Shown here piece by piece: positions 8,266-43,500 of a DNA stretch of 64,000 bases. The stretch comes from Incurvaria masculella (lineage: Eukaryota; Arthropoda; Insecta; Lepidoptera; Incurvariidae): contig OX335644.1 in assembly GCA_946894095.1 (NCBI GenBank), positions 25,959,595-26,023,594 of the forward strand, read 5' to 3'. The translations under genes and the position numbers were made by a program. The notes below the pieces were generated by a model, which was not told where the DNA came from, searched no databases, and worked only from the letters and a program-made list of their open reading frames with translations. Position 1 is the first letter of the stretch; every line of letters starts with the position of its first letter.

Positions 8266-8302
8266 ATGAAGTTAACCACAGTTATTTCTTTAGTGTTAGT
8301 TG
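8266..8302 (+). CDS. Signal-peptide exon, candidate trissin exon 1
   Basis: ATG AAG TTA ... GTT G, then donor GTAAGT at 8303. It encodes 12 residues (MKLTTVISLVLV) plus the first base of a Gly codon, so it ends in phase 1. This is the N-terminal half of a signal peptide, a split common in insect secreted proteins. Trissin exon 2 starts in the matching phase and supplies exactly the missing second half (GGALWAEA). No other second-half candidate was seen between 8.3 and 17.2 kb. It could still belong to a different secreted-protein gene, such as a cuticle protein, whose next exon I failed to see. Confidence 0.5.
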
Positions 8303-11300: not shown

Positions 11301-14300
11301 TTATATAATCAAGATTTATAATCTATTTGATTTTTGTTCGATTTTTTACTACAGCGTTCGTGGTTTACTTTTAGCTATAAGTCATTTTGTAATTAAACCA
11401 AATCATACACTATGCACATTGTATTTTTTGTGGACATGTTGCATCTTCCTCATCACGGAGCCTGTCTTTTTCTTTGAAACAGAGAAGGTCCCAGAGCGCA
11501 ACAGCACGGTTTTGTACCGTGCCCGCGATCGAGTTAGTCCCGCCGGGTTGGGCCACCTTAAAAAGATTAGTCATCAGACATAGTTTATTTAATCAAGATT
11601 TACAATCTATTTGACTTTTGTTTTATTAACCGACTTCAAAAAAGGAGGAGGTTATCAATTCGTCGGAATCTTTTTTTTTTTTTTTTTTTTTTTATGTATG
11701 TTCACCGATTACTCGAAGACCCCTGGACCGATTTGAAAAATTCTTTTTTTGTTCGAAAGGGTATACTTTCTAGTTGGTCCCATTTTTTTTTTATCAAAAT
11801 CGGTTCAGTAGTTTGGTACTTAACTATACCAACATCGAATTTCTTAACCCCGCGAACCCAGAAATGTGATTTTTTAGTTACAGTAGCTTTCTTTTCGGGT
11901 GAGATTGCTCAGTATGAGAGGTTTTTTTTTACTTCAACTGTTGGGGGTATTCAAGGTGGTAAAAGAGGGCAAATTGTACACATTTCTATCTCTAGAGCCG
12001 CTGAACCCAGAAATTGCAGAGTATGTTTGTTTTAGATGGGAATGCTTTAGAAGAAAATATTTTTGGAAATTATACTATTAGGGGGGTAAAACAGGTCAAA
12101 ATGAACACATTTAGGCGAAAACCACTCATGTTGAGATCTCTGAAACCAATTATCCTCGAAACTTAAAATTTTCAGTGACTTCTTGTTAAGACGAAAAGGC
12201 TCGCTCACAACGGATTTTACAAAATTCAACTGTTAAGGGGGGATAAACGAGGCCGATATATACACATTTTCATACAACTTAAACTTACGCAAGAAACAGA
12301 CTATCCGGAACGATGTAAGGATGAGAAATTCAGAAGCTCAGCGGTTCCGGTCATTCGTTGTTTTGTCTTTTTAGGGTTCCGTTCCCAAAGGACACCAACG
12401 GAACCTTATTACTAAGCTTCCGCTATCCGTCCGTCCGTCCGTCTGTCACAGCACTCTATCTCACGTGATCTCATCGTATCAATTATCGTACGTATGAACC
12501 GTAAACTCATGAATCCAGATAGTTACCGGTCTACCTTTCGTCAGAAATGAGATTTCTTAATGGTTTCATTTCTGCTAATGCTCGTTCATTGTATTGCATT
12601 GTATTGTATATGTATGTATATCTTCTTTCCACTTTGTATGTGAAGTTGAGCAGGAGGGCTCGCCCACCTTGAGTCAAAAGTTACGCCACCACTAAAAAGC
12701 AAAAAATAAAATATTTTTAAATAAAAAAAGGACCGCCTTCAAAAAAACCGGAACTAAAAAGCAAAAAATAATTGGTTACTTTTAATTAATGTACGAAAAG
12801 CTATTTTAATTCTAAATAATTATGTACAATTTCTTAATTTTTAATCATCTTTTGAAGTCGGTGCCTTGGGTAGACGTTCTTTAAGGGCTGCAAGTAGTTT
12901 GATTAATATCACCTATGGCTAAGAAAGAAATATAAGTAGGTAGTTACTTACATTTACCTACTTGAACAAAACACAAAAACAAAAATTAAATAAACAAACA
13001 GGTCGGAAAAACGTATGTAAGTAGGTATTTAGGCAAGTACTTTGTAATTTAAATATGCCTTATACTTAAACTAAATACCTAACACAGTAAAAACAAAATA
13101 TTTACAAGAAAACCCTACGAACAAACCAATATAAAAACAACGACCACTTATATGATAAATATTTAGGTAGGTGTAGCTTGTACTTTTTATTCTACCTAAA
13201 TACCTACATAACACAAAACAAAAAAAAACAAATATAGAAAAGAACAGAAAACAATAGGTAGCGACTTTGAGGTGTCTGCTCTCAACTACGTGACAAAACG
13301 AGTGTGCGGTTAGTACATATCTCACCAATTTCGTCAGAATTCGTCTCGTTCAGACAACGATGTTGCAGGGAAGTACCAATCAACACAGAGGTGCGAATTA
13401 ACGTACTCCTTCACCAGTGCGCGCCTTTATAAAGCCGAAAGTACTAATAATCGTTGAAACCCAATTTCAGTACGCTGCGCTGTATCGATATCAGCTTGCA
13501 CGTAAACCAACGCTAAGGGCATCTCCAGTTAGACGAACGGTTGCTTAAAATGCTCTGTGGAATGACGATGTCTGTGGACCAATCATTGCTGACTCAGGTT
13601 GTTTACGCTCTCGTAGACTTCGGGTGTGTTTGGCTGAAATAGTATCTGTTCGGTCAGCAGCGTGCGAAGCGAACTCTACCCAAGGCACCGACTTCAAAAG
13701 ATGATTAAAAATTAAGAAATTGTACATAATTATTTAGAATTAAAATAGCTTTTCGTACATTAATTAAAAGTAACCAATTATTTTTTGCTTTTTAGTTCCG
13801 GTTTTTTTGAAGGCGGTCCTTTTTTTATTTAAAAATATTTTTTTTTTACTACAGCGTTCGTGGTTTACTTTTAGCTATAAGTCGTTTTGTAATTAAAATT
13901 TTGGTAAATGTTACCAAATCATACACTATGCACATTGTCTTTTTTGTGGACATGTTGCATCTGCCTCATCACGGAGCCTGTCTTTTTCTTTGAAACAGAG
14001 AAGGTCCCAGAGCGCAACAGCACGGTTTTGTACCGTGCCCGCGAATGAGTTAGTCCCGCCGGGTTGGGCCACCTTAAGCTGAATCCCTCACGAACGAAGC
14101 CCTGTTACCCCTTAACCTGAAGCGTTTGTTCTAGGGATGGCTTTCTCGCGATGCGCGCTGACGATTAGACGACACAGGAGGGGGGCCTCGGCCGACGCGG
14201 ACCCCGGATCAGGTAGTGTTCCCAGGATACGTTGGCACGCCCCTAACGTTAGGGTTGGCACTATTTTCGGGACGTACATTTTAGTCCGTCTCATTCGTGG

Positions 14301-17300
14301 ATTTTACACCAGAAAATACTGTAATATATTTTATTGAATATTTGTTTAGTAAATTCATTTGAATGTTTAATACCTTTTGAGAACTTAATCTATTGTACTA
14401 AAAAAATTGCTTGGCTGTATTATTTAGATCTGAGCGTTTATTTAATTTCTGTCGAGGAAAAATATATTTAAATCAGTGTTAAAGCCAGTGTTAACAAGTT
14501 AAATCAAACTTCTCTACTGAGTTAATCGTATCGTATTGTATTTTGTATTCGTCAAATTGGTAGACAAGCTACACTCAGACAGGTCATATTTTCTTATTTT
14601 AAGGCATAGATAATTAGGATTTACAACAATACACAAAACAACAATTAACATTCATACATCTTACCATTTGTGGCATATACAATCGTCAAACTTACTGAAT
14701 AATTAAATAACAATCATTTTGTGGCGTATCTTGGTGTGATTTTACAATTAAAAGGTTGTTGGTTTCATAAAATGAAATTAAATTTGCTATTTTAATTACT
14801 CGCTCGTAAATTTAGACATATCTACACTTAAATTTAGACATTTAAGAGGACTCTAGTCACACCGCCCGACGTCAAACCGCACAATCTTACTTTCCCCTTC
14901 ATCTGGCAAACGGATACTCTGCTATCTTTCATGATATGTTCGCTACCTTTGGTCTTTTATCATCATATTTAGGAGTAATCTCAAAGTCATTACTTGCTTT
15001 GAAATAAAGCCTGTGTGTGTCTTATATTCGAGCGTCATGGGACCATGCCATATTATCATACCGGAACAGGACAATATCTACTAGAAAAAAGGCTTGAAGT
15101 TAAATGCACTATTTTTTTTAAGAATTCGACGTTATATTGAATCGACCGTGAAGCAGGAACACATTAACTACAGAGAGAATGCTCTACAAAAGAACTGCTT
15201 CATAAGTTACAAGCCTTTTTCGGGCAATGTTCTAATTCTGTCACACCTCACCCGTAATCATTGCCTCCTGCTAACACATTGTTAACATCCTACATGTAAT
15301 ATTCTTATTACCATTTTTTTTCTTTAACGGTCGGTTCTACAAACACATATCCCATTTGTTGGAAACGTTTTGTGTTCAAAGTATTCTACTTTTGATTAGG
15401 ATAGTTCGATTCACTGGGTTCGATTGATTAACCTCGGTGTTTTTTTTTTGGGATTCTTTGAATGGGGACGATTAGCGACGTGAATAAACGACAGAAGTAT
15501 CGTTAGATAAAAAAAAATTGAGTGTGGAAAAAAAGTAAAGGGTTGTGCCAACATATCCTGGAAATACTGTAGGTGCTTGGAGTTGTAAACCTAGAAATTA
15601 GAATTGTTAGTTTATGGATTATTATGATATTTAAACTTTCCGTGTAGACAGCAACGTAGTTTAAAAGGATATAAATAAAAGGCTATAAACGACCTAAGCC
15701 ATTTATGTTGCATGCTCATAACGCATGACCAAAAACAAATAGTGTTATTATCTTTCTTCTTCGACTGATGCTTTACTCCTCCGCATGACCTAGTATGTAC
15801 ACACCTAGTATGTACATCACTAGTAAATGTACACCATTTCCATCTGTTATGAATGGTTCCATTTGCATGTAACCCATTCGGCCTACCTCGACAGGAGAAT
15901 GGAAAGTAATACTCAATAGAGTACTCCTGTCAGTAAACATAATCTGTACCAACACATTTGTCTCAGCAAACATGAAATACAATTAGTTGTTGTTAATAAT
16001 TTGTATTGTGAAAACTGCAGGCGAATTGGACTCCTGTAGTTTGGGTCAAGAATACAGTCTACTTAGCGAATAACCCAATCTACAACACGCATTTATTTGT
16101 GGCTGCAGAAAATCTGGACTTCTCTGTTCAACTTCAGCTGACTATGAATGTATCATTCGCTCTCCTAGAATGTGCATACCAGGGGCCGAACTGGCGTCAT
16201 ATGTGAAGGAATTCGATCAATTATGCACCAATCAGAATTGGATGCCAAATATTCTACTCAGTAAGAGACCAGAAGGTATGATGTAAACGCTGCTGAGAGG
16301 TGCACAATTTATCGCATTCCTTCACATATTTTCTCACATCTTACGCCGGTAACCCCCCCCCCCCCCCCCGGCCTGTAACCAGAGTGGGCAGTCTGAGTTC
16401 TCACCAAAATTGGCGTTTACGGCAAACCGATCGACTGGCGTTTTCTCCAAACTCCATACAAGTTTTTACTAGATATTCTGTGGTTTTACTTCTTCAAGCT
16501 GTCAAATTCAAACGCGGACTTCCGATTTGTATGAAAACGCGGAGTGGACGTAAACGGCAACGTCGACGTATTTACGGCAACGTTGAGTAAGCTGTCAAAT
16601 CAAGCTCGGACTCGCAAATGTTAGTTCGCTTAACGCCCGCTGCGCGCGCTCTTCAATTTCTCCATACATTTGAAAACGCCAGTCGATCGGTTTGCCGTAA
16701 CGCCAATTTAGGTGACAACTTAGACTACCGGCTCAGAGCCCGTAGTCCCAGTTGTCACCGAAATTAGCGTTTGCGCCAGACTGGGCAACCCTCGGGGCAA
16801 CCGCGTCAAATAATATAAAAAGTAAAAAAATAAAACAACTAAATATGTTAAAACAAGATAATACAAAACAAGATTTAGACGCACAGACGAGTTAGACCAA
16901 AACACCTGACTGTGATAGTTCGCTTACGAATTCGGGAAGCGCAACGTCGAATGTTCGTTGCACCTGTGAAGTTTTTACGTGTTCTTACGTGTCGTTTTAA
17001 CTCGAGAATACCTGTAGTAATTATATATATAAGAAGTTTCAGTTGCTACTCCCGTCCTACCATGCTCGCTGGTGGCACACGACACCCGGCCGGTTCCCAT
17101 ATGATAACACGGACAATATGCCAGTCATCATTGGCCCGGTTTCCTTTTCTGCGGTTTACTCGAGAAGGCCACGCGTCGTCGACCCTCTATCCGCTCGCCG
17201 CTGTCACTTTCAAACGATATCACACGTAACGCCCCGCCGCAGGTGGAGCGCTGTGGGCTGAGGCGGCTGGCGGCTGCCAGTCGTGCGGCAGCGAGTGCGC

Positions 17301-20300
17301 GGCGGCGTGCGGCACGCGCCAGTTCCGCACGTGCTGCTTCAACTACCTGCGGCGCAAGCGAGCGACGCCCGCGCCGCTGCCACCCGCCGGACTCAAGGTA
17401 TCCGCCATGTAGCATGACAGGGGGCGCGCTGTGGGCGGAGGCGGCCGGCGGCTGCCAGTCGTGCGGCAGCGAGTGCGCGGCGGCGTGCGGCACGCGCCAG
17501 TTCCGCACGTGCTGCTTCATCTACCTGCGGCGCAAGCGAGCGACGCCCGCTCCGCTGCCGCCCGCCGGAATCAAGGTATCCGCCATGTAGCATGACAGGC
17601 GGCGCGCTGTGGGCGGAGGCGGCCGGCGGCAACCAGTCGTGCGGCAGCGAGTGCGCGGCGGCGTGGGGCACGCGCCAGTTCCGCACGTGCTGCTTTAACT
17701 ATCTGCGGTGCAAGCGAGCGACGCCCGCGCCGCTGCCGCCCGCCGGACTCAAGGTATCCGCCATGTAGCATGACAGGCGGCGCGCTGTGGGCGGAGGCGG
17801 CCGGCGGCTGCCAGTCGTGTGGCAGCGAGTGCGCAGCGGCGGCGTGCGGCACGCGCCAGTTCCGCAGGTGCTGCTTCAACTACCTGCGGCGCAAGCGAGC
17901 GACGCCCGCACCGCTGCCGCCCGCCGGACACTGATAGGCGGCGCGCTGTCGTGGCATGTCTGAACGCAGATCGTAACTGTTCGATCGGTGAGGCTGGTTG
18001 TGGTTTGGATTCCACAAAATATTATCCCCTTACTTAACGGCTCGTAGCTCAGGAGCAAGGCGACTTGCCTTCTATGCCAGAGGCCATGGGTTCGATCCAT
18101 GACCCGTTCATGAAACACTATATTTCCCATTCTGACCATAATTTCGTCCAATGCGATGGCACCGACCCGGGCGGGCTTAGTCCTACCATCCAGTAGACGA
18201 AAGGTGTCATATAATGAGAAGAAAAGTTTATGTCAGTTTGACTGCAAGAAAAATGTAAAGAACAAATAAAAGATTTCAAAGTAAAAGGTCGTATTCTATT
18301 CATGGTAGCATCAGACTGCGCCGCAACAACATTTCTGGCGACCGTGACAGGACGCAGTCTTACAAGAGACCATGGACAACCTCCGCAAGGAGCGCACCGT
18401 TTTACGGCGACTTTTTACTATTTCGGAAAAAAGATTATCAGATATGGACGAAACAGCGGAAACAAAAGAACAGGTAATTACAATTTATAAGATCCTGCAA
18501 GCGAAAGCGGAAGCCCTGTTTCGGTTGGATTTGCTTATCGAACAACAATTAATGAAAGATGGAGAACTCGATGAAGAAATCCTGAATAAAGAGTGCGAGT
18601 CAACAGAAAATTACCAATTACGCTGGCGCTGCATGATTAATAAATATCGTCATATTTTGAGTCAATCAATCCACGAGGGTGCTAGTTTGTCAGGCAGCAG
18701 TGTGTTGGAAAATAATACCGTCACACAGGGGAACTATGGGCATGACCCTATTGATCGGTTCGTGGAATGCGATAAATTGAGACAAACATACGAACAAAGC
18801 GCACGACGAGATTCTGCACAATTCACCGATAGTTTGGAAAGTCAAGTAAATGGAGAAATAAATAGAAAAAATCAATATAAGAAACATTTTCACTTACCAA
18901 AGATTGAACTGAGGAAGTTTGACGGACAAATGAAAAATTGGCTTGGATTTTGGGGTCAGTTTAAAAAGATAGACGAAGATGTGGAGATAGATGACGACGA
19001 CAAGTTCCAATATCTTTTACAAGCAACCGAACCTGGATCAAATGCTCGGGAACTTGTCGATAGTTTTCCTCAGTCAGGTCTAAATTACCACAAAGCGATT
19101 GAACAATTAAAGAGTCGCTTTGCCAGAGATAACCTAATGATTGAAAATTATGTGCGAGAGATTTTGATCATAGTAATGACGCAAGTTAAGCAAGGAAAAC
19201 CATACAATTTACGTAATCTTTATGATCACTTGACCACTCAGTTAAGATCACTGGAAACACTGGGCGTAACAAGTGACAAATTTGCAGCCATGCTGTATCC
19301 CATGATAGAATCGGCGTTGCCAGAAGATATCATAATTGCATGGGAGAGAAGCTACAAGGAGATAGGTCAAAATCGGCTGGAAAATTTACTTGTATTTTTA
19401 AGAAAAGAAGTGGAGACACAAGAACGAGTAGAGATAGCCAAAAGTTGTTTCCAGCATGCAGATTTTCTAAGAAAAATCGCACAGCCAACGGCCTCATTTA
19501 TGATATCGGGTGAAGCAAAGAAGGTTCCAGAAGTCAAAAACCTTAAATGTATGTGGTGCGATAAAAAACACAGCAGCATTGAATGCATTTCAGCATCTAA
19601 AATGTCAATGGAAGACAAAATGGAGATTATTAAAAAGAAGAGAGGGTTGGGTTGGATATTGCAGCGTCCGAAAACTGGTTCAAGCTATACTGCGACTGTA
19701 AATATGACATGTCTACTTAATGAAGATCTTTCCCATTTATGGCACCTGGATGTGCTGGATCCAGCCGAGAGACAATGGAAGAAAAGGAAAAAAAGTAGTC
19801 TTGAGCCAAGCTGTATCCAGAAGGATACTTACACTACAGGACATTAAGGAAGAAAAACCTATTCGACAGCGGACGACCAAAGTAGGAAGTGTAGTGAAAG
19901 GCCCAGATAGATATAGGTTCTCAATATAAATTTTGATTTAATATTTATGTGGTAAACCCTTGAAAAGGTGTTAAGGTAATTTATTTTATTTTGTGTTGAC
20001 TTTTGAACCCCAAAAGTCAAGATGGGGAGTATGTCATATAATGAGAAGAAAAGTTTATGTCAGTTTGACTGCAAGAAAAATGTAAAGAACAAATAAAAGA
20101 TTTCAAAGTAAAAGGTCGTATTCTATTCATGGTAGCATCAGACTGCGCCGCAACAACAAAAGGGGCCCTACAGCTTTACATGGATTTCAAACCATGGAAC
20201 GCATTTTTAACCGAATGCATTGCAACTCATAAAGATATTATTTATTAATGTTAAACGCGGCATATGGCGTACGACAGGACCTCTTAAGATGCCCGACGAC

Positions 20301-21014
20301 CAAGGAGGTGAAGAAAGACACCCATGGGATTTTGAACTTAGAGGGGGCTGGCGCTTCCTCACACCATGTTTGAAGGATCCTAGGTTGTACTTTGGGGGAA
20401 ATACCTCGATTAAAGTGGTGCATGAACGGATTCGGGATTTGAACTGGCACGGAAGGAAAGTTCACATGTCTCTGAGTTATGATCTGCTCTGTGGCAGGAA
20501 AACAGACAAGGAACAGGAAAAAGTGGTGGAAACAATTAACTTTAAATGTAATAAAGCTTGTTGATTAGCTGTTTAAGCATGTTCTATAAAATGGCGGCTA
20601 CAGCTCAATTCGATTTTGAAACGCAGAAAAAAACATGGTATTTACAAACATTGTATTATGTAATCAAGCCAAGAATATGTGGTACAAAGCGCAGGTTTTG
20701 TGTGTTATTGAGTGGATCCCTGGATCGTTTAGATTTACAATTTAACTTGGTTGGTGGCGCTGTTGTCGAGATATTTCCCCGGTGGAGCCGGAAACTACAA
20801 TCACTCAAAAACGAACACAGCCCTCAACCAATCTTCTCGCTAGTTGCAGCTCTGGCTGGCGAAGAATCAGGACCCAGAGGCGGCCCGTCAGCGGCGGTTG
20901 CCCGTGTTCCTCGAGCCCCTCTCCGACCCGCCGTCGCCCGCGCGCGTCGCCTACGACCTCGACCAACTCGCCGACCCGCTGGAGAGCCAGCTGCAGCTCA
21001 TATACGACTCCTAA
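8266..21014 (+). CDS. Trissin neuropeptide precursor, candidate three-exon model
   Basis: Model: exon 1 8266-8302, exon 2 17243-17397, exon 3 20850-21014, giving ~118 aa. The joined N-terminus (MKLTTVISLVLV, then GGALWAEA) makes a textbook signal peptide with A-x-A before the cut. Next come the mature peptide with six Cys (C-x2-C-x3-C-x3-C-x7-CC), ending FNYLRRKR with a dibasic processing site, and then a 54-residue C-terminal propeptide ending LQLIYDS. The Cys pattern and the GTR-FRTCCFNYLR core are those of insect trissin, a secreted peptide hormone acting on a G-protein-coupled receptor. Phases agree at both junctions (1 and 0). What is uncertain is exon 1, chosen by phase and signal-peptide fit across ~9 kb, and whether the other three copies of exon 2 are used. 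The symbol is left blank because naming differs between species. Confidence 0.55.
8303..9690. other. Repeat-derived intron sequence
   Basis: 8395-8720 resembles the common insect repeat built around CACTGAACGGATATTAATG and AATTTGG. 8895-9040 is a decayed 5S-head SINE body (TGTGGTTCGTATTCACGTAA). 9150-9610 has overlapping open frames on both strands; part of it (AGCGAGGCACCATACCAGCG) recurs near 38090, so I treat it as repeat. Confidence 0.4.
9690..10215 (+). pseudogene. LINE reverse transcriptase C-terminal remnant (Jockey/R1-like)
   Basis: Across shifting frames the translation shows LLAFNVRNAKCCVFSAKAKP (about 9823-9884), later SRNISKDVGFRRLLG and, near 10060-10110, IEYCSHIWEGGPQYL. These match the order found downstream of the catalytic region in Jockey/R1-type LINE ORF2 (N-x-KTQxCxFSAK, then LGV, then RPxxEYCSHIWxGAP). 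There are frameshifts and at least one stop, so it is dead. The catalytic YADD region is not present. Confidence 0.6.
10216..11019. other. Unassigned AT-rich intron sequence
   Basis: No exon, known repeat or RNA gene seen. Confidence 0.4.
11020..11561 (+). repeat. TTAA-2 element, 3' complete
   Basis: It matches the copy at 40756-41576 and ends CCGGGTTGGGCCACCTTAA at 11561. The left end is degraded (GGGGCTCAACTCCCTATAC). Confidence 0.65.
11625..12360 (+). repeat. GGAGG repeat
   Basis: It starts ACCGACTTCAAAAAAGGAGG, followed by a run of 22 T. It continues through CACCGATTACTCGAAGACCC and several CTGAACCCAGAAAT units. This is a family widespread in Lepidoptera; the frames through it are not genes. 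Confidence 0.65.
12368..12472 (-). repeat. GTTCCG element, truncated
   Basis: Only the end with GGGTTCCGTTCCCAAAGG and CCGTCCGTCCGTCTGTCAC remains. Confidence 0.65.
12708..13841. mobile_element. Foldback element with ~167 bp inverted termini
   Basis: 12708-12874 reappears reverse-complemented at 13675-13841 (outer text AAATAAAAAAAGGACCGCC, inner text GGTGCCTTGGGTAGA). The arms look nearly identical. The ~800 bp core has no transposase frame but includes a TTTATAAA box near 13425. The right arm abuts a TTAA-2 fragment. Confidence 0.7.
13842..14077 (+). repeat. TTAA-2 element, 3' half
   Basis: From CTACAGCGTTCGTGGTTTAC to GGGTTGGGCCACCTTAA. The left half is missing next to the foldback element. 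Confidence 0.65.
14078..16385. other. Unassigned intron sequence
   Basis: 14110-14300 is GC-rich and open on both strands, without a motif I recognise. 16350-16368 is a homopolymer C run. A short frame between stops at 16073 and 16285 encodes a Cys-rich stretch (FICGCRKSGLLCSTSADYEC) and is probably transposon-derived. No supported exon. Confidence 0.35.
16386..16737 (+). repeat. CTCAC MITE, full length
   Basis: The left end GTCTGAGTTCTCACCAAAAT pairs with the right end ATTTAGGTGACAACTTAGAC. The inner AAACCGATCGACTGGCGTTT pairs with AAACGCCAGTCGATCGGTTT. A further partial end follows at 16738-16800. Confidence 0.75.
16738..17242 (+). other. Intron 3' end upstream of trissin exon 2
   Basis: Holds the partial CTCAC end, then unique DNA with no gene. 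It closes with the acceptor CCCCGCCGCAG at 17242. Confidence 0.4.
17243..17397 (+). CDS. Trissin mature-peptide exon, copy 1 (intact)
   Basis: It lies between acceptor GCCGCCGCAG-like text and donor AAG/GTATCC (GT at 17398). It is 155 nt, entering in phase 1 and leaving in phase 0. It encodes the end of the signal peptide (GALWAEA), then GGCQSCGSECAAACG and FRTCCFNYLRRKR: all six trissin cysteines and an RRKR processing site, then a Pro/Ala-rich linker. Its acceptor is the best of the four copies, and its donor joins in frame to exon 3, so this is the copy I expect in the main transcript. Reading past the donor meets a stop within five codons (VSAM, TAG). Confidence 0.85.
17421..17575 (+). 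CDS. Trissin mature-peptide exon, copy 2
   Basis: A 155 nt duplicate, exactly 178 bp after copy 1, with its own AG (GCATGACAG) and donor AAG/GTATCC in the same phases. All six Cys and RRKR are kept. One change in the core is FNYL to FIYL, and the linker ends GIK instead of GLK. An in-frame ATG lies at 17414, giving a 58-residue stand-alone frame to the TAG at 17588. The acceptor lacks a pyrimidine tract, so use is doubtful. It could act as a mutually exclusive exon encoding a variant hormone, or be unused. Confidence 0.6.
17599..17753 (+). pseudogene. Trissin mature-peptide exon, copy 3 (decayed cysteines)
   Basis: The reading frame, borders and 178 bp spacing are kept, but the first Cys is Asn (GGNQSC) and the fourth Cys is Trp (AAAWG). 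The RRKR site is RCKR, still with a KR pair. Two of three disulfides or more would be disrupted, so it cannot make normal trissin. The frame is open, so decay is by missense only. Confidence 0.7.
17777..17934 (+). CDS. Trissin mature-peptide exon, copy 4 (no donor)
   Basis: It has all six Cys but an extra Ala between the third and fourth (CAAAAC), and Thr to Arg before CC (FRRCC). The RRKR site is kept. The text diverges after PLPPAG and ends in HIS then TGA at 17932-17934, with no GT donor. If it is ever the acceptor exon, it would give a terminal peptide without the C-terminal propeptide. Otherwise it is a broken array end. Confidence 0.55.
17935..17950 (+). repeat. Stub of a fifth trissin repeat unit
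   Basis: AGGCGGCGCGCTGT repeats the start of copies 3 and 4, then homology stops. The donor-spacer text between copies 4 and 5 is deleted. Confidence 0.5.
18038..18204. repeat. SINE target of the Pao insertion, left part
   Basis: 18038-18110 is a tRNA-like head (TAGCTCAGGAG and GGTTCGATCC boxes). 18140-18204 is SINE body in minus orientation (CGACCCGGGCGGGCTTAG). The body is cut by the LTR element and resumes at 20159. Confidence 0.65.
18205..18331 (+). repeat. 5' LTR of the Pao element
   Basis: 127 bp, TG...CA ends. It contains AATAAA (about 18262), usable as an LTR polyadenylation signal. I see no difference from the right LTR. Confidence 0.9.
18332..18353 (+). other. Primer binding site of the Pao element
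   Basis: TGGCGACCGTGACAGG begins a few bases after the left LTR, where minus-strand priming by a tRNA 3' end is expected. The tRNA was not identified. Confidence 0.6.
18372..19847 (+). CDS. Pao-type Gag polyprotein, DUF1759 family, C-terminally rearranged
   Basis: 491 aa from MDNLRKERTVLRRLFTISE. The N-terminal half is helical. A DUF1759-like region at about residues 170-350 includes LPKIELRKFDGQMKNWLGFW and FQYLLQAT; its (L)PKxxLxxFxG-xxxxWxxFWxxF signature is typical of Pao-family Gag. Near residue 392 a metal-knuckle-like CMWCDKKHSSIEC follows. After about residue 425 the text leaves the family pattern and stops at 19847; another frame nearby resembles the end of pol. This suggests an internal deletion joined gag to the pol 3' end. 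Gag forms the particle that packages element RNA in the cytoplasm. It is retroelement-encoded and lies on the sense strand of the trissin intron. Confidence 0.85.
   Translation: MDNLRKERTVLRRLFTISEKRLSDMDETAETKEQVITIYKILQAKAEALFRLDLLIEQQLMKDGELDEEILNKECESTENYQLRWRCMINKYRHILSQSIHEGASLSGSSVLENNTVTQGNYGHDPIDRFVECDKLRQTYEQSARRDSAQFTDSLESQVNGEINRKNQYKKHFHLPKIELRKFDGQMKNWLGFWGQFKKIDEDVEIDDDDKFQYLLQATEPGSNARELVDSFPQSGLNYHKAIEQLKSRFARDNLMIENYVREILIIVMTQVKQGKPYNLRNLYDHLTTQLRSLETLGVTSDKFAAMLYPMIESALPEDIIIAWERSYKEIGQNRLENLLVFLRKEVETQERVEIAKSCFQHADFLRKIAQPTASFMISGEAKKVPEVKNLKCMWCDKKHSSIECISASKMSMEDKMEIIKKKRGLGWILQRPKTGSSYTATVNMTCLLNEDLSHLWHLDVLDPAERQWKKRKKSSLEPSCIQKDTYTTGH
20032..20158 (+). repeat. 3' LTR of the Pao element
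   Basis: A 127 bp match to the left LTR, preceded by the purine tract GATGGGGAGTA and followed by the AAAGG duplication. Confidence 0.9.
20159..20222 (-). repeat. SINE target of the Pao insertion, right part
   Basis: GGGGCCCTACAGCTTTACATGG continues the SINE body interrupted at 18204. Confidence 0.65.
20223..20849. other. Intron sequence before trissin exon 3
   Basis: The 20250-20560 text (GGCATATGGCGTACGACAGG) recurs near 25645 and inverted near 55140, so it is a dispersed repeat. An ATGGCGGC motif lies at 20591. It ends in a good acceptor (CTTCTCGCTAGTTGCAG at 20849). Confidence 0.4.
20850..21014 (+). CDS. Trissin C-terminal propeptide exon (candidate)
   Basis: Acceptor TTCTCGCTAGTTGCAG, then 54 residues and TAA. 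It opens LWLAKNQDPEAARQRRLPVF, continues acidic with two Pro-rich turns, and closes LESQLQLIYDS. It starts in phase 0, matching the donors of peptide copies 1-3. GC-rich codons match the peptide exons and contrast with AT-rich surroundings. The RQRR could be a second processing site. I assign it to trissin by position, phase and composition; I do not recognise this propeptide by homology. An ATTAAA poly(A) signal follows 102 bp downstream. Confidence 0.6.
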   Translation, partial: LWLAKNQDPEAARQRRLPVFLEPLSDPPSPARVAYDLDQLADPLESQLQLIYDS

Positions 21015-27856: not shown

Positions 27857-27959
27857 ATGGCGTCGCCTAGAATCCTGCTCGTCTTCTGTGCTGTCTTGTT
27901 TCTGGTTGTAGTTGAAAATGCAGCCAAGAAAAGACATACAACAACTCCTGTACCTGCAG
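27857..27959 (+). CDS. Exon 1 of the secreted Cys-rich protein
   Basis: ATG in GAAGATGGCG context, signal peptide and linker. It ends GCA G with donor GTAACT, phase 1. Confidence 0.75.
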
Positions 27960-29483
27960 GTAACTTTTAGGACCTACCGCTGATTAGCTTAATCGCCGCA
28001 TATCAAGGGCCTTTGTTAGCAGCTTGCATTCAATACCAGTACAAGTTAATCAGAACTTTAGTAATAAAGGCACTTTAAGTGTCGATTAAAATAAATCAGG
28101 ACTTGGTGAAAACCAGGGTGAATCATAACATATACATACATAACCTTTCTTTGTAAACATGGGACCTCTTGGGCAAAAGTCTGGTAACATTTCACTGGAT
28201 TGTTCAGTAATAACACGTCTAGTATTAATAAAATATTTTAGGCTTTCTTCTTCAACTTTAGGTCCACATTCGCTCCATGTGGAGCTAACTAAAACCGTGT
28301 AATAATACCTAAAATTTGTTAGGTTATAGGTCGAATGATATGTTTTGCTAGTAACCTAATAAAGTAGATATTTTAGAGGGCTCTTTCTTTAGTTAATTTG
28401 TGCTTGCTTCACGGTCGATTAAACATACTAACATTTGTGTTGGTTTGGTTATAGGTCGAATGGTATGTTTTGCTGGTAACCTAATAAAGTAGATATTTTT
28501 ACAGGGCTCTTTCTTTAATTAATTTGTGCTTGCTTCACGGTCGAAAACATACTAACATTTGTGGGTTTGGTTATAGGTCCAATTGTATGTTTTGCTGGTA
28601 ACCTAATAAAGTAGATATTTTTACAGGGCTCTTTCTTTAATTAATTTGTGCTTGCTTCACGGTCGATTAAACATACTAACATTTGTGGGTTTGGTTATAG
28701 GTCGAATTGTATGTTTTGCTGGTAACCTAATAAAGTAGATATTTTTACAGGGCTCTTTCTTTAATTAATTTGTGCTTGCTTCACGGTCGATTAAACATAC
28801 TAACATTTGTGGGTTTGGTTATAGGTCGAATTGTATGTTTTGCTGGTAACCTAATAAAGTAGATATTTTTACAGGGCTCTTTCTTTAATTAATTTGTGCT
28901 TGCTTCACGGTCGATTAAACATACTAACATTTGTGGGTTTGGTTATAGGTCGAATTGTATGTTTTGCTGGTAACCTAATAAAGTAGATATTTTTACAGGG
29001 CTCTTTCTTTAATACTTTGTGCTTGCTTCACGGCCGATTAAACGTACTAACATTTGTGTTGGTTTGGTTATAGTTCGAATGGTATGTTTTGCTGGTAACC
29101 TAATAAAGTAGATATTTTTACAGGGCTCTTTCTTTAATTAATTTGTGCTTGCTTCACGGTCGATTAAACTTACTAACATCTGTGTTGGTTAGGTTATAGG
29201 TCGAATGGTATGTTTTGCTAGTAACCTAATAAAGTAGATATTTTAGAGGGCTCTTTCTTTAGTTAATTTGTGCTTGCTTCACGGTCGATTGTACATACTA
29301 ACATTTGTGTTGACAGAACGGTTGCATTACCTGCCTCTACCGTGCCTGGTCCTATGCCCTCGCAAGTGCAAAACAGACCCGGCAGGATACCTGAAGTGTT
29401 GCGGCGAATTCTGTATATGGGCGATCACGCCTGAATTCAGTGAAGATTATTACGATGAACCGAAGACGTTTAACCAGAAATAA
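27857..29483 (+). CDS. Small secreted cysteine-rich protein, two exons
   Basis: Exons 27857-27959 and 29317-29483 give 89 aa. Residues 1-22 form a signal peptide (MASPRILLVFCAVLFLVVVE), followed by a basic/Thr-Pro linker (AAKKRHTTTPVPAG). The mature part holds six Cys: CLVLCPRKCKTDPAGYLKCC, then GEFC. Spacing C-x3-C-x3-C-x10-CC-x3-C recalls the C-terminal half of a WAP (four-disulfide core) domain, lacking the Cys after the Asp and the N-terminal pair. The tail is acidic (EFSEDYYDEPK). Junction phases agree (1). The family is not recognised; a secreted inhibitor, antimicrobial or extracellular-matrix role would be guesswork. ATTAAA at about 29490 may be its poly(A) signal. The intron is dominated by a tandem repeat. 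Confidence 0.75.
27970..28120. repeat. Dispersed ~150 bp repeat
   Basis: GCTGATTAGCTTAATCGCC through GTCGATTAAAATAAATCAG matches, inverted, the segment at 57433-57952. That copy carries a TTAA-1 insertion; this one is the uninterrupted version. Confidence 0.65.
28316..29310 (+). repeat. Eight-copy ~124 bp intronic tandem repeat
   Basis: TGCTTGCTTCACGGTCGA recurs at 28401, 28527, 28649, 28773, 28897, 29020, 29146 and 29271 (spacings 122-126 bp). Inner units are nearly identical; the first and last share TTTTAGAGGGCTC instead of TTTTTACAGGGCTC. Most units include TACTAAC, the branch-point consensus, about 20 nt before an AG. The last unit supplies the 3' splice site of exon 2. Confidence 0.9.
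29317..29483 (+). CDS. Exon 2 of the secreted Cys-rich protein
   Basis: Acceptor GTGTTGACAG, 54 residues with all six mature cysteines, TAA at 29481-29483. Confidence 0.75.
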
Positions 29484-33148: not shown

Positions 33149-34343
33149 TCAAGGTTGGGCCTGAAACCCAAGATTTCCGTTCTGGGGTCCGGATGTATTC
33201 AACATTCTCGCCATATGTTCATCGACGTAACTCAAAAACGAAGCCACGCTCTCCGATTTGTAAAGGTCATCTTCTGACGCGCCGCTATGCGCCGGGAGGG
33301 ACGAATCGCCAAGCAGAGTGTCCCGTTCCATTCCATTGATAAATCCCTTGCTTGTTCCTTTCTTCGATTTCCGCTTCCTCATGTTATTCAATGGACACAG
33401 ACGACTGGTCACGTGGTACCTCAACGAGTACTTCTGCGTGAACAGCTTGCCACAGTCACACGCGTAGGGCCTGCTCCCCAAGTGGGTCTTCTTATGTTTA
33501 CTCAGCGCGTCCTTCGATTTGAAAGTCTTCCCGCACTCGTCACACGCGTGGCACCGCTCTATCTGGTGACTCCGCTTGTGTATCCGGAACACGTTGCGGA
33601 ACCTGAACGTCTTGTCGCACAGCTCGCACACGTACGGCTTGTCGCCGGTGTGCACTCGCATGTGGCACTGCAGCGTGTGCTTCTGGGCGAAACTCTTCTC
33701 GCACTCGCTGCAAGAGAACGGCCGCTCGCCGGTGTGGGTCCTGTAGTGCGTCACTACCAGGCTCTTTGTCGTAAAGCTCTGCCCGCACTCTTTGCACTGG
33801 AAGGGCCGGTCTCCGGTGTGCACGCGGAAATGCATCTTCAGGAGGTTCTTCTGGGCGAACCTCATGCCGCAGGTGTCGCACTCGAACGGCTTGTCGCCGG
33901 TGTGGGTTCTCGTGTGCCGCGTCAGATTCCCTTTCTGGGTGAACTTCAGGCCGCAGATGTCGCACGCGAACGGGCGGTAGCCGGTGTGGGTTCGGTAATG
34001 GACGTTGAGGTCGGCGTTGCGGATAAAATGGTGGCCACATTCGAGGCACACGAACGGTCGGGTGTCCTTGTTGAGTGGTCTATTGTTAGGGTCGAATTTG
34101 ATTCTCGGCAGTTTCAGCACACACAATTTTTTCTTTGGGTTTTTTCTGTGGTCTATGTATCTTGCGGCGAGAGGAGGGTCTTCACCTTCTGATGATGGTG
34201 CATCTTTTTTTTCCTCTTTGACCTTGACTAGGAATGTCGTGGGCTGTTTGGAAGTCACCGCTGACTCCGAATCAGATGACTGCTCGATGTTATCTATGGG
34301 TTCGATTTTTATTCCCACATCATTTGCAACATCGTCATTCGGC
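33149..34343 (-). CDS. Zinc-finger exon (terminal)
   Basis: Acceptor TTTTTCTTTTCAG on the minus strand just above 34343, then 397 codons to TGA at 33149-33151. An acidic linker (NIEQSSDSESAV) precedes fingers starting FVCLECGHHF, FACDICGLKF, FECDTCGMRF, FQCKECGQSF, FSCSECEKSF, YVCELCDKTF, HACDECGKTF and YACDCGKLF (C-x-C and ending in Cys, degenerate). A basic RKRKSKKG stretch follows as a possible nuclear signal. High GC in the fingers creates long false frames on the opposite strand. Confidence 0.9.
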
Positions 34344-37300
34344 CTGAAAAGAAAAAAAAAACTGATTATACATTCTGGGCTTGACATTAATCGACAACTT
34401 TTAGACAATTAAAACCTTAAGAAATGATAACTGGAAAAAAAAACATGCCTATTATGGCAATTTAAGCGAGAGAGAGTGAGAGTAAAGTGGAGTACTGCCC
34501 TCCTTATTAAAAAGGCGTTAACTACATTGGACCTAATATGTAGTTGTTACCGCCTTCTTAATAAGGAGGGCAGAGTATTGGTGTATGGAGTATTATAATT
34601 TTAGTAGTGTTATTTCAACTTCTTTCTTTTGACTGAATATTTTTTGTTTCCAATTTAAAGTTGTTTTTTACGAATTGTTATATTTTATAATAATAAAATA
34701 ATACATAAACACAATGTTGTATTTTTTAAATATTTTTTTTCTTTGAATTGGAGCTTATATTAATAAATCAGTAAAAAGTGCTCTAACTTCTAAACTACTA
34801 AGAATGCGGTAACTACATCCCCGGTGATTATGATAGTAAATAAGCTCCTCTATCACCCCAGTTCGTTTGGACCATGACTTTTGGGACACCCTGTATATAG
34901 CAGCCCGTCCCGGCTTTGCACGGGCTTAATATAATTTTAAAAATATTATTTTGACACAATGATACACAAATGAACCCTTCTTTCCTTCCTAAAAAAAGAG
35001 CATATACTTACATTGAAATATTTGAAATAAAAATAACAAATTTTGTATTATATATTAGCTTTAAGTTCAGTTTTTTTGTTGTTTGTTAAATAGATAGTCA
35101 AAAATTAAGCATGTAGTGTTGACAACGTAGTCGCGTGTACATTGCTGTATTAATATAAGTTTATTTTTTATTGTAATCTCTATATTGTATAACTTTGTAT
35201 TTTAACCAATAAATAAATACAAAGTTTGTGCTATGGAACGAAAATCGTTCATTTCATGCGGATATAGCTGAAGTTACATAATAACTAGCTGAGGTACCCG
35301 GCTCCGCTCAGATCAATGTCGTTTTGGACTGATGTTGGGCTGAATTATTCCCTGAATATTATATAAGTTCCCCATACAAACTTTCATCCCCTATTTCACC
35401 CCCTTAAAGTTTCATTTTCGCCACAAAATGTAGCCTATGGCCTTCCTCAAGGTCCAGAATATCTCTATACCGAAATTCATCAAAATTGGTTCAGCGATTT
35501 AGTAGTGAAAACGCAACAGAGCCAGTTACTTTTGCATTTATAATATTAGTATGGATATATTTGAGCTTGATAAGTTAAGTGCTCTTTGAGAAATTTAAAA
35601 TGAATGAATGCCTTAAGGTCGGCCCGTAAGCATCAGAAAATTTCGCCCTCCCATACAAACGTAGTTTACTAATAATTTGAAAACCACTGTTCCAACTTAC
35701 TTGATTTTTGGTATCTAATATTAGGCTACAAATATCTGTGTCTGCATGTCTTTGTTTTTTCGGTAAATGTATTCTGGGTCAAACCACAGAGAAAACAAGA
35801 TTCGTATGTAGATTTTCTTTTTGCTTTCATTTCATTCGGTTTGGATTTTTCAAAAAAAAAACAAAAGCATGCAGACACAGATATTTGTTACCTGATATTT
35901 GAGACATAGCTTACGGGCCGTTCTTAAGAATGGCCCGTAAGCTATGTTCCCCATACTAACGTAGTAAACTAATTATTTGAAAAACCCTGTTCCAATTTGC
36001 TTGATATTTGGTATCTAATATTCGACAATAGTTATCTGTGTCTGCACGCTTTTGTTTCGCTCAAAAATCTAAAGCCAGTCAAATAACAGGCAAAAGAAAA
36101 TCTTCATACCAATTTTCTTTGCTCTATTGTTTGACTCAGGATAGATATTTCGAAAATACAAACGCGTGCAGACAGATATTCGTTGCTTGATATTATATAC
36201 CAAATATCAAGTATATAGGAAAAGTGGTTTTCCAATGGCCGACCTTAAGGGTTTTATAAACTTAGCACTTGCAAAAAAACAATATTTGTTCTAAAAAAAT
36301 ATTCTTTGAACAATACCGACCGTAGAACAGGCGCGCGGGGATCTGCCTTCCTGCCTTAAGGCTGTTCCGACCCATATAAAGTTGTTTGCACACATAACGC
36401 AAAAAGTATTGCACTTTAAGCCACGAATTAATAATAAAAGCTTAATATAGTCATATTACTTGCAGCGAAAACAATTTCACAATTTCAGGATTAATGGTTT
36501 CGTTGTAATTGCCGATTAGAAGTTTTACACCGTTAAATGTTAGGGTTAAGCCTGCCAGGGTTGGCACTATCGCATTGGATTGAAAAAATGGTGGAAACGG
36601 CAATGACAAATTATCCGTTTTTCCATTTAGCTCAATGTAGACGTGATCATAAAGGGAAGGTCCCGGCATGGCACCTAATTATTTCGGGAATGCGTTAATA
36701 TCATGATGGTTGGTATGGTATAAGCGATCCATGTCCGGTTACATAAAAATACCTGATACATTAAAAAATCTTACTCCGTTTTCACAACTGCTTCGGTTTT
36801 TTCCGCCTTCACGAGCACCAGCTCCGGTGTGGCGTTGGCGGCCTTCTCCACGTCCGGGGTCTCAATTTTGATTTTTTTGGCTAATTTCTCGTGATTTTTT
36901 GTCCTGCAACAAAAACATACGCTTCTGCAATGGCATGCAATGCTGCATCGCTTCTTGTTGGTCTGCTGTAAGATGGGGCATCAGAATGGGTAGGTTTTTT
37001 TTTTATGCGACCTGACATGGATGGCTAATGCCACACAACTACCGTTATGATATTAGCCCAATACACCACATTCCCGAAGGAATTTGGTGCCATGCCAGGA
37101 CCTTCCCTTTATGAGCACGGCTACATTAAACTGGATGGAAAACACGGACGATTTTTCATTGCCGCTTCGACCATCTTTTCATCCAATGCGATGGTACCAA
37201 CCCGGGCGGGCTTAAATCCTACCACCTAGTAGTGGAAGGGGACCTACAGTTTTACATGGATTCCGAAACATGGAGCAGCTCGCATTCGTAACAAAATGCA

Positions 37301-40501: not shown

Positions 40502-43500
40502 GTGAGTTTGAGGTTATGTTTTGACACTCGTCTTCACTTTTTAAAAATATTCGAAAGATATCGTAAACATTTTCTGTTCCGGTCTTCGCAGTAGCCAAAA
40601 ATATTCGAAAGATATCGAAAACATTTTCTCTTCCGATCTTCGCATTAGCCACTTCGGCGATGTATGCATAGAAGTTTACTGCACTTAATACTTCTCTCCC
40701 CTTCCCCACCACCTGCACTTCCACCTCTTGTCTTACCCAAGTCTTGCTTCCATGCTTAAGGTGGCCCAACCCGCTCAACTCCCCATACAAACGGGGAAAT
40801 AAGATCACGCCCATTTTTCTTATCAGGGATCCCAAATTTTGCTCAAAATAGCTTTATTTGATCGAACTAGATGTCTGATGTCCGTTGGCATTGTAAAATT
40901 GTGTTTGGTTTCTAAGTTGTAAGGTCGGAAAGTTCGAATTTTTCGCGCGTTTTATACAATAACTTTGGTGGTTTATTACGCAATGATAAAGTAAGAAAAT
41001 CTTAAAAATATTAGTCATCAGACATAGCTTATTTAATCAAGATTTATAATCAATTTGGTTTTTGTTATATTTTTGACTACAGCGGTCGTGGTTTACTTTT
41101 AGCTATAAGTCGTTTTGAAATCAAAATTTTCGTAAATCTTATCAAATCATACACAATGCATATTATCTTTTTTTTAGGGTTCCGTACCCAAAGGGTGAAA
41201 ACGGAACCCTATTACTAAGCCTCCGCTGTCCGTCCGTCCGTCTGTCCGTCTGTCACTGGTAGACAGCTGAAATTTTCACAGAGTGTGTATTTATTTTGCC
41301 GCTATAACAACAAATAGGTAAGATTAAAAAATAATTAAAATTAAAGGGGGCTCCCATACAAAAAACGTGATTTTTTTGTTTTTTTTTTCTACGATGGTAC
41401 GGAACCCTTCGTGTGCGAGTCCGACTCGCACTTGGCCGGTTTTTGTAGACATGTTGCATCTTCCTCATCACGGAGCCTGTCTTTTTCTTTGAAACAGAGA
41501 AGGTCCCAGAGCGCAACAGCACGGTTTTGTACAGTGCCCACGAATGAGTTAGTCCCGCCGGGTTGGGCCACCTTAAGGGTAGGCACCTGCACATGAATCG
41601 CCAGCCTAACTCTAGGCGTAATTGTCTGTTTATCCTGCCGTTCACTATGTTCTTAGCAATCACTCTTCTTTCAATGTCTAGATCATAGTATCTATCAAGG
41701 AAAAATAACACCCCAGAACTGATTCACCTGTCATGTATACTTAAAATCGATTTTTACCGATATCCCGCAGATGTCCTGGCAGCACGAGAAGGATCACACT
41801 CGCACCACGTACTACTTCTCATCGGCGCTCACCTACCTGCTCGCGATGGTCTGCTCCAACCTGGCGCTGCAGTGGATCAACTACCCCACGCAGGTGTGTG
41901 CCGTCCCGTCACCGCCTGCCCGACCATCTGTTGGCACAGGCTTGCGGTGCCCAATGTGGTGAACAACGATGGGCACCCATCTTGTAACGCTAAAAGCGTG
42001 GTGGCTGGTCGGTCCGGGTCGGAGGACCCGCAATGAAGACTTTGCGGGTCCCGCACCTCCTGCCCCGACACTCTCCAAGTTAGGTGCGGTATTTAATCCA
42101 ATTTTTCGTTACGTTTAGATTTTAATGACGGGTTGGTGAATTGAAAACCACATGGAGACAGGGCCGGATTTAGAGGTATGAACATGCAACACAGTAATGG
42201 ATGCCCCTAATTTTTTTTCATATAGCCCGGAAGCGGCGGTGAATGCGTTCCACAAAAACCTTAAAGAGTTCCCTAAGGAAGACTGGTCGAACTTCTTTTT
42301 GCAATGGTTCCAAATAATGCAAAATAACATTTATTTTGAGGGCGCATATACTTTGACAAACAATAAAAGTATCACAAGAATTCAGAAACGTTCTCTAAGT
42401 GAACATATAATGATATAAAAACACACTGTTATAAAGAAAAAATATTACTGAATCGATAAATCGAATTTAAGCCATGCCAGGAACTAACCTCCACAAGCAC
42501 AGCTACATTGGGCTGGATCGAAAATACGGTCAATTTTCGTTGGCGCTTTGACCCTCGTTCATTCAATGCGATGGTGCCAAGGCAGGTGGGTTACAGTTTA
42601 ATGTGAAATCCGAAACAGAAACGAATCCCTTAGTTGGCTATTGCAAAATGCACGGGAAAAAATGCAGTGGGCTCAATTATATTATTTTTTGTGTCAGAAC
42701 TCGCTTAGCTCAAAATGCCTGTTAGTACACCTTGTTGTGCAGAATTTAGATGCAGCTATTCTTTTTCCACTTCCTAATGACGGGAGGTACTCCGCATCAA
42801 CCCTACACTTTCCTGTTTCAGGTAGTTGGGAAGGCAGCGAAGCCAATCCCCGTTATGATACTGGGCGTACTCGTCGGCAGAAAGGTGTACCCGCTCAAGA
42901 AATACCTCTTCGTCTTTCTTATTGTGCTCGGGGTGATCACATTTATGTACAAGGTATTTTGATTTCTTTCATTTATTAATATAGTATTAAGTTCTCTAGC
43001 ATATTTTTTTTCTCTTGATTTGATTGGGGCTTTAGCCATGATTGACTATGCTAGCCCCGTAGTAACTGTTTTGTGTGTTTATTGATTGCTGCGCAGATTG
43101 ATTGCTTGCACGGCTACATTGAACTGGATGGAAAACACGGACAATTTTCATTGCCGCTTCGACCATCGTTCATCCAATGCGATGGTACCAACCCGGGCGG
43201 GATAAACCCTACCACCTAGTAAGTAAGGAAGGGGACCTACAGCTTAACGTGGAATCCGAACCACGGCCAGCCTCTCTCAACGGTCGAATGGTCACCCATC
43301 CAAGACCAGACCGGACCCAGCGTTGCTTAACTTCGGAGAGCGATCGCCGAAGTGTCGCGCCACTGGGCCACCGAGGCTGACAAAGAAGTTAAAGAAGTTG
43401 GTCACAATTTTGAATTCTTTACTCTGTTGTTGGCACAGGGCATCATGGATTTAAAAAAATAGATTTAGTCTATCCGTGCATAGATCTATCAACAATTTAT

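What the first reader, a model, noticed from the sequence alone, without database searches (positions are those of the whole stretch)
17243..17950. Trissin hormone exon amplified in tandem (four copies plus a stub)
The exon encoding the mature trissin peptide is repeated with an exact 178 bp period at 17243, 17421, 17599 and 17777, and a fifth start at 17936. Trissin is normally encoded once per precursor. An array of separate peptide exons, each with its own AG and (copies 1-3) GT borders in matching phase, is an unusual way to diversify or dose a neuropeptide, and I know of no description of it.
Basis: partly seen in the sequence, partly recalled or inferred. Interest (0 to 1): 0.88.

Follow-up and report, generated by a model that had tools for sequence, protein, structure and literature searches.

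The report
Tandem exon duplication in trissin gene
In what looks like a moth or butterfly genome, the exon that encodes the hormone trissin has been copied four times in a row, but the spacing and reading frame let a messenger RNA use only one copy usefully, and only the first copy still encodes a standard hormone, so this is most likely a recent duplication with decaying spares rather than a hormone-diversifying device.

Summary
The array is real. Three 155-nt exon copies and a fourth, altered one start at 17243, 17421, 17599 and 17777; a 12-nt stub follows. It sits in a complete-looking trissin gene: signal exon 8266-8302, a probable optional exon 14135-14212 as in lepidopteran isoforms, tail exon 20850-21014. 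The 118-aa product matches insect trissins (best E 2.6e-19). Two protein queries of the 552-Mb assembly found no other trissin exon.

The diversity or dose reading is not supported. The gap between copies is 23 nt, below the roughly 50-nt donor-to-branch-point limit from vertebrate work. The exon is asymmetric (phase 1 to 0), so joining copies shifts the frame. Read-through past copy 1 meets TAG. One usable peptide per mRNA at most.

Only copy 1 is intact. The six-Cys spacing and the Asn of FNY hold in 120 of 120 homologues listed. Copy 2 loses the Asn, copy 3 two cysteines; copy 4 changes the Cys spacing and lacks a donor. Copy 1's five private changes are all synonymous; copies 2-4 have 6 nonsynonymous, 6 synonymous.

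Best reading: a young tandem exon duplication, tolerated because copy 1 still works. Exclusive use of copy 2 is not excluded; RNA-seq junctions would settle it.

The parts
8266..8302 (+). trissin exon 1, coding part: ATG and signal peptide start MKLTTVISLVLV(G); donor gtaagt from 8303; TATAAAAG about 94 nt upstream of the ATG
   Evidence: same signal-peptide start and splice position as lepidopteran trissins
14135..14212 (+). probable optional exon of 78 nt (phase 1 to 1, frame-neutral) like the extra segment of lepidopteran trissin isoforms; peptide GMAFSRCALTIRRHRRGASADADPGS
   Evidence: mean local score to 13 lepidopteran segments 31.0, reached by 0 of 2000 shuffles; this place fills the top six of 145 open phase 1-1 AG..GT candidates in intron 1; DNA. 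Not shown by RNA.
17243..17397 (+). exon 2 copy 1: signal end, mature trissin with six Cys, RRKR cleavage site; donor gtatcc; the only copy with all conserved residues
17398..17420 (+). 23-nt spacer gtatcc...cag; in-frame TAG at 17410-17412 if copy 1 is read through; repeated identically at 17576-17598 and 17754-17776
17421..17575 (+). exon 2 copy 2: six Cys kept, FNYL changed to FIYL; AG and GT borders kept
17599..17753 (+). exon 2 copy 3: first Cys to Asn, fourth Cys to Trp, new Cys in the cleavage site (LRCKR)
17777..17934 (+). exon 2 copy 4: extra Ala between Cys 3 and Cys 4, Thr to Arg, donor lost, ends in TGA
17938..17949 (+). 12-nt stub of a fifth copy, then other intron sequence
20850..21014 (+). 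trissin exon 3: precursor tail LWLAKNQ...LESQLQLIYDS and stop TAA; one place in the genome by DNA search

Best explanation
This is the only trissin gene that two protein queries detected in the genome of a probable lepidopteran (order inferred). Its mature-peptide exon, with its donor and about 20 nt of intron, was tandemly amplified recently. Copy 1, next to the original intron, is the working exon: exon 1 (with or without the optional exon 14135-14212) splices to copy 1, and copy 1 to exon 3, giving a normal trissin precursor. Copies 2-4 are mostly silent spares that are decaying and were partly homogenised with copy 1. The array is tolerated because a transcript that reads past copy 1's donor stops at TAG after ...LKVSAM, downstream of the complete peptide and its RRKR cleavage site. 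Shown: array, gene anatomy, frame and stop arithmetic, residue losses. Inferred: which splice sites are used, young age, homogenisation, absence of function in copies 2-4.
For: Copy 1 spliced to exons 1 and 3 gives an intact precursor related to insect trissins; with the optional exon the frame also stays open. Only copy 1 keeps every position invariant in the 120 homologues listed (substitutions). Copy 1's private changes are 5 synonymous, 0 nonsynonymous (P 0.001-0.003 under neutrality); copies 2-4 have 6 and 6 (P 0.07-0.13, not distinguishable from neutral). Upstream of their AG, copies 2-4 have only the spacer and the preceding exon instead of the native intron; pyrimidines 10 of 20 against 12 of 20 for copy 1, a small difference. 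Joining copies shifts the frame; read-through stops after the full peptide. Genome searches with P0002 and P0013 find these four copies and otherwise only hits at E 0.6 or worse.
Against: No RNA data, so exon choice is inferred. Copies 2 and 3 keep AG, GT, phase and an open frame, and 6:6 is somewhat short of neutral nonsynonymous change. Copy 1's donor gtatcc is weak (6 of 9 against a recalled consensus, exon 1's donor 7 of 9; two donor-like sites scoring 8 of 9 lie in the intron at 18474 and 19976) and is identical in copies 2 and 3, so the donor does not favour copy 1. Copy 1's own pyrimidine tract is not strong. The Fisher test of copy 1 against copies 2-4 is not significant (P 0.10). Copy 1's changes cannot be polarised without an outgroup, and no relative's genome was available to date the array.
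Confidence: 0.7

Rival explanations
1. Copies 1, 2 and perhaps 3 are mutually exclusive exons. The 23-nt gap sterically blocks joining them and the phase 1-0 exon makes double inclusion useless, so each mRNA carries one of two or three trissin variants (FNYL, FIYL, and a five-Cys form).
For: AG, GT, exon length (155 nt) and phase are kept in copies 1-3; open frames; 6:6 substitution ratio in copies 2-4. A gap below 50 nt and frame-shifting joint inclusion are recognised ways of enforcing exclusive choice, from human and vertebrate work (PMC5740500, PMC7969005, passages only).
Against: The Asn changed in copy 2 and the two Cys changed in copy 3 are present in 120 of 120 homologues listed; copies 2 and 3 lack the native upstream intron sequence.
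Confidence: 0.17
2. The array mainly alters splicing of copy 1: competing identical donors give read-through or long exons that end at TAG in the first spacer, making a tail-less precursor or a transcript open to nonsense-mediated decay, and so tuning trissin output.
For: Acceptor 1 with donor 2 or 3, and full retention, all give ...LKVSAM stop; donors are identical and weak.
Against: No expression data; exon definition would favour the nearest donor for a 155-nt exon (general knowledge).
Confidence: 0.08
3. Assembly error: the true genome has one copy, or another number.
For: No reads could be examined; tandem repeats can be mis-sized.
Against: Copies 1-3 differ by 8-11 per 178 nt, so they are not one sequence repeated by an assembler; the array spans only 0.7 kb; the assembly has 31 contigs for 552 Mb.
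Confidence: 0.05

Closest known systems
Trissin precursor genes of Lepidoptera (e.g. Pararge, Bicyclus, Bombyx)
   Same: Signal-peptide start, optional extra segment before the core, mature six-Cys core with RRKR/RKKR, tail ending near ...LQ.(I/M)YD(A/S)
   Different: All 120 homologues listed carry one trissin core each; here the core exon lies four times in one gene. Paralogous trissin precursors occur in other moths (S. frugiperda Trissin-1 and -2, PMC11766081, passages; several species with two or more entries).
Parnassius apollo trissin pair (P0014, P0017)
   Same: Two trissin-core proteins recorded with the same longest contig length (1451396), so a nearby duplication involving the core exon is likely
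   Different: Each has its own, slightly different tail, so core and tail seem to have been duplicated together; gene structure not seen.
Locusta neuroparsin gene (PMC4237046, section 17 and passages read)
   Same: One neuropeptide gene whose mRNAs share two coding exons and each add one specific exon
   Different: There expression of the alternatives is shown by reads. Here no expression data, near-identical copies 23 nt apart, extra copies damaged, and a shared exon follows.
Tandem exon duplications / mutually exclusive exons (Dscam1 and others; PMC9013439, PMC5740500, passages read)
   Same: Head-to-tail copies of an internal exon with the same phase to the flanking exons; gap below 50 nt; joint inclusion shifts the frame
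   Different: Copy 4 has no donor, copies 2-3 lack conserved residues, use untested.

Membership tests
trissin precursor | six-Cys core CxxCGxECxxxCGxxxFxxCC followed by FNY | tested here: met
   Copy 1 fits. All 120 homologues listed fit the pattern up to CC, and FNY follows in 120 of 120. Copies 2, 3 and 4 each fail some part of it.
trissin precursor | core follows the signal peptide and ends at a basic cleavage site | tested here: met
   MKLTTVISLVLVGGALWAEA.. then core then RRKR; this layout is described for Polyneoptera in PMC7179676 (passage). No signal-peptide predictor was available.
trissin precursor | sequence homology to named trissins | tested here: met
   12 hits at E <= 0.01; 248 with the alignment, best 120 listed. 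Pfam: no model matched.
trissin precursor | activates the trissin receptor | not testable with these tools
   needs receptor assay
mutually exclusive exon cluster | adjacent similar exons, same phase and length, splice sites intact | tested here: inconclusive
   Met by copies 1-3 as far as AG, GT, length and phase go, not by copy 4
mutually exclusive exon cluster | a bar to joint inclusion (gap under 50 nt or frame shift) | tested here: met
   23-nt gap, 155-nt exon; joint inclusion destroys the frame
mutually exclusive exon cluster | each exon observed in transcripts, one at a time | not testable with these tools
   no RNA-seq available

The most novel reading that the evidence does not exclude
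A neuropeptide gene that chooses one of two or three tandem mature-peptide exons per transcript, with exclusivity enforced by a 23-nt gap and a phase mismatch, producing standard trissin (FNYL) and a variant (FIYL) from copy 2, in a genome where two protein queries found no other trissin gene.
Probability: 0.13. Interest if true: 0.65.

Novelty: new variant of a known kind. Interest (0 to 1): 0.36.

Why it matters
It catches tandem exon duplication at an early stage in a single-core neuropeptide gene: exclusivity is already built in by spacing and phase before any use of the copies is shown. If copy 2 proves expressed, it would be a short route to a second ligand for one receptor; if not, it shows how a hormone gene tolerates a broken exon array because the stop falls after the peptide and its cleavage site.

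Tried and rejected
Dose by several peptides in one precursor: rejected, because joint inclusion shifts the frame and read-through stops after copy 1.

A second trissin gene elsewhere: protein searches of the own genome with P0002 (5 hits, four of them the array, one on C16 at E 0.8) and P0013 (6 hits, four of them the array, two at E 0.6 and 1.6). The C16 place was looked at only as an ORF list, in which I saw no six-Cys core; the other two were not looked at. A search with P0007 did not complete. The tool scores only its best candidates, so a diverged trissin could be missed.

The optional extra exon of lepidopteran isoforms: my first look was a weak tblastn likeness at 14167-14220 (E 0.09 and 0.12 with two queries, 4.1 with the third, whose best match, E 0.03, lay elsewhere at 41766-41813 minus). 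I was about to dismiss it; on reading the DNA and testing it I accept it as probable. The 13 comparison segments were picked by me, so the score is not blind.

Naming the organism: a search with the zinc-finger ORF 33149-34408 (120 of 1878 hits listed) gave mostly vertebrate zinc-finger proteins and did not help. Lepidoptera is inferred from the best hits, the optional exon and the tail; the tail alone is not decisive, since the cockroach precursor P0120 ends rather alike.

PDB sequence search: no relative better than E 0.2. Rfam: none. Structure prediction and fold search were not run.

Literature: eight searches in the open-licence library; the listings showed 40 of 123, 30 of 31, 20 of 220, 15 of 28, 5 of 5, 10 of 161, 4 of 4 and 23 of 23 papers. 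No title or abstract start shown reports a tandem trissin exon array. Beyond the listings I saw passages of seven papers (PMC7179676, PMC4237046, PMC4926255, PMC9013439, PMC7969005, PMC5740500, PMC11766081) and one whole section of one of them (PMC4237046 section 17). Roller et al. 2016 on Bombyx trissin (seen only as a reference) was not read, so absence from print is not shown.
Full report
What is there. The window holds a complete-looking trissin gene on the + strand. Exon 1 (8266-8302) has TATAAAAG upstream and a gtaagt donor. Exon 2 encodes the end of the signal peptide, the mature peptide and an RRKR cleavage site. Exon 3 (20850-21014) encodes the tail and stop. Spliced through copy 1 the product is 118 aa. 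It matches insect trissins: best E 2.6e-19 (Pararge, 45% identity), a named Carabus trissin at 4.5e-18, 12 hits in all at E <= 0.01. With the alignment there are 248 hits, of which 120 are listed; these 120 include the 12.

An optional exon. Lepidopteran isoforms carry an extra segment between signal start and core. Intron 1 holds a 78-nt AG..GT candidate at 14135-14212, phase 1 to 1, after a T-rich stretch (gtttgttctag), encoding GMAFSRCALTIRRHRRGASADADPGS. Its mean local score to 13 lepidopteran segments is 31.0, against a shuffle mean of 16.3 and maximum of 27.2 (0 of 2000 reach it); this place also fills the top six of 145 open candidates of the same phase in intron 1. Including it keeps the whole precursor in frame. 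It is probable, not shown by RNA. With the best hits it makes the animal a probable moth or butterfly; the species is unknown. The tail fits too, but a cockroach tail is rather alike (ten tails printed).

The array. Exon 2 lies four times head to tail with period 178: 155 nt of exon plus a 23-nt spacer that is identical in all three places. Copies 1-3 differ from one another by 8, 10 and 11 of 178. Copy 4 has a 3-nt in-frame insertion, no donor, and a TGA. A 12-nt stub of a fifth start follows at 17938-17949. GC is 74% in the array against 39% in the window. By DNA search the exon was found only here in the 552-Mb, 31-contig assembly, and exon 3 only once.

Why the copies cannot add up. The exon enters in phase 1 and leaves in phase 0, so exon 1 fits each copy and copies 1-3 fit exon 3, but two copies in a row shift the frame. 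The gap is 23 nt; thresholds given for human and vertebrate genes for a donor and a branch point to be used together are about 50 nt (PMC7969005 and PMC5740500, passages); I have no insect value. If the first donor is passed over, translation ends at TAG 17410-17412 after ...LKVSAM, which still contains the whole peptide and the cleavage site. So an mRNA should carry one usable trissin at most.

Which copies are sound. In all 120 homologues listed the six-Cys spacing holds, and Asn follows CCF in 120 of 120 (the pattern itself requires the Cys spacing, and no protein failed it; the Asn was not part of the pattern; the 128 unlisted hits were not seen). Copy 1 keeps all of these. Copy 2 has Ile for that Asn. 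Copy 3 has Asn and Trp for Cys 1 and Cys 4. Copy 4 has four instead of three residues between Cys 3 and Cys 4, and Arg where homologues have Thr, Ser or Ala (68, 35 and 17). Insertions in the core are reported for a few Orthoptera (PMC7179676, passage), so copy 4's spacing is unusual rather than unheard of. Copy 1's private changes are 5 synonymous and 0 nonsynonymous (P 0.001-0.003 under neutrality); copies 2-4 have 6 and 6 (P 0.07-0.13); the two classes do not differ significantly by Fisher test (P 0.10). Four of copy 1's five private changes lie in the first nine codons (P 0.002), which suggests, but does not show, that the rest was homogenised with the array.

How it most likely arose and works. 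At the unit junction only CAG of the native acceptor side is shared, so copies 2-4 did not receive the native upstream intron. The array then seems to have lost its 3' end: copy 4 has no donor and a stub follows. Copy 1 remains the working exon; the others are tolerated. Which acceptor is used is inferred, not shown; the donor of copy 1 is weak and shared by copies 2 and 3. Exclusive use of copy 2 remains open.

Context. Searches for other trissin genes in the same assembly found none with two queries. In one search several Lepidoptera have two or more trissin entries (e.g. Mythimna separata P0039/P0044, Euphydryas editha P0057/P0058, Heliothis virescens P0047/P0052), so more than one trissin precursor per species is not rare in the order. 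Within one precursor, all 120 carry a single core.

Known kinds. Tandem exon duplication and mutually exclusive exons are well known (PMC9013439 cites a 2002 study finding tandemly duplicated exons in about 10% of animal genes, passage), and alternative exons for one neuropeptide gene are known in locust neuroparsin (PMC4237046, section 17). A trissin exon array was not met in the listings and passages named under Tried and rejected.

Noticed in passing
28318-29309: A second tandem array: 124-bp unit, 8 copies, 94% match, lying between two open stretches (about 27857-27959 and 29317-29483, read) that look like exons of a small secreted Cys-containing protein. The neighbourhood may be prone to tandem amplification.
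   Followed up: partly
18037-18109: A tRNA-Arg-like stretch by ARAGORN just downstream of the array; possibly the head of a tRNA-derived short interspersed element. The genome search for its copies did not complete.
   Followed up: partly
18348-19847: A 499-codon open frame with DUF1759 (PF03564, E 4.4e-20), possibly a retrotransposon gag-like fragment, inside trissin intron 2.
   Followed up: no
33149-34408 (-): A C2H2 zinc-finger open frame of 419 codons; protein search gave general zinc-finger proteins.
   Followed up: partly
40543-40651: Two-copy 54-bp tandem repeat, 92% match.
   Followed up: no
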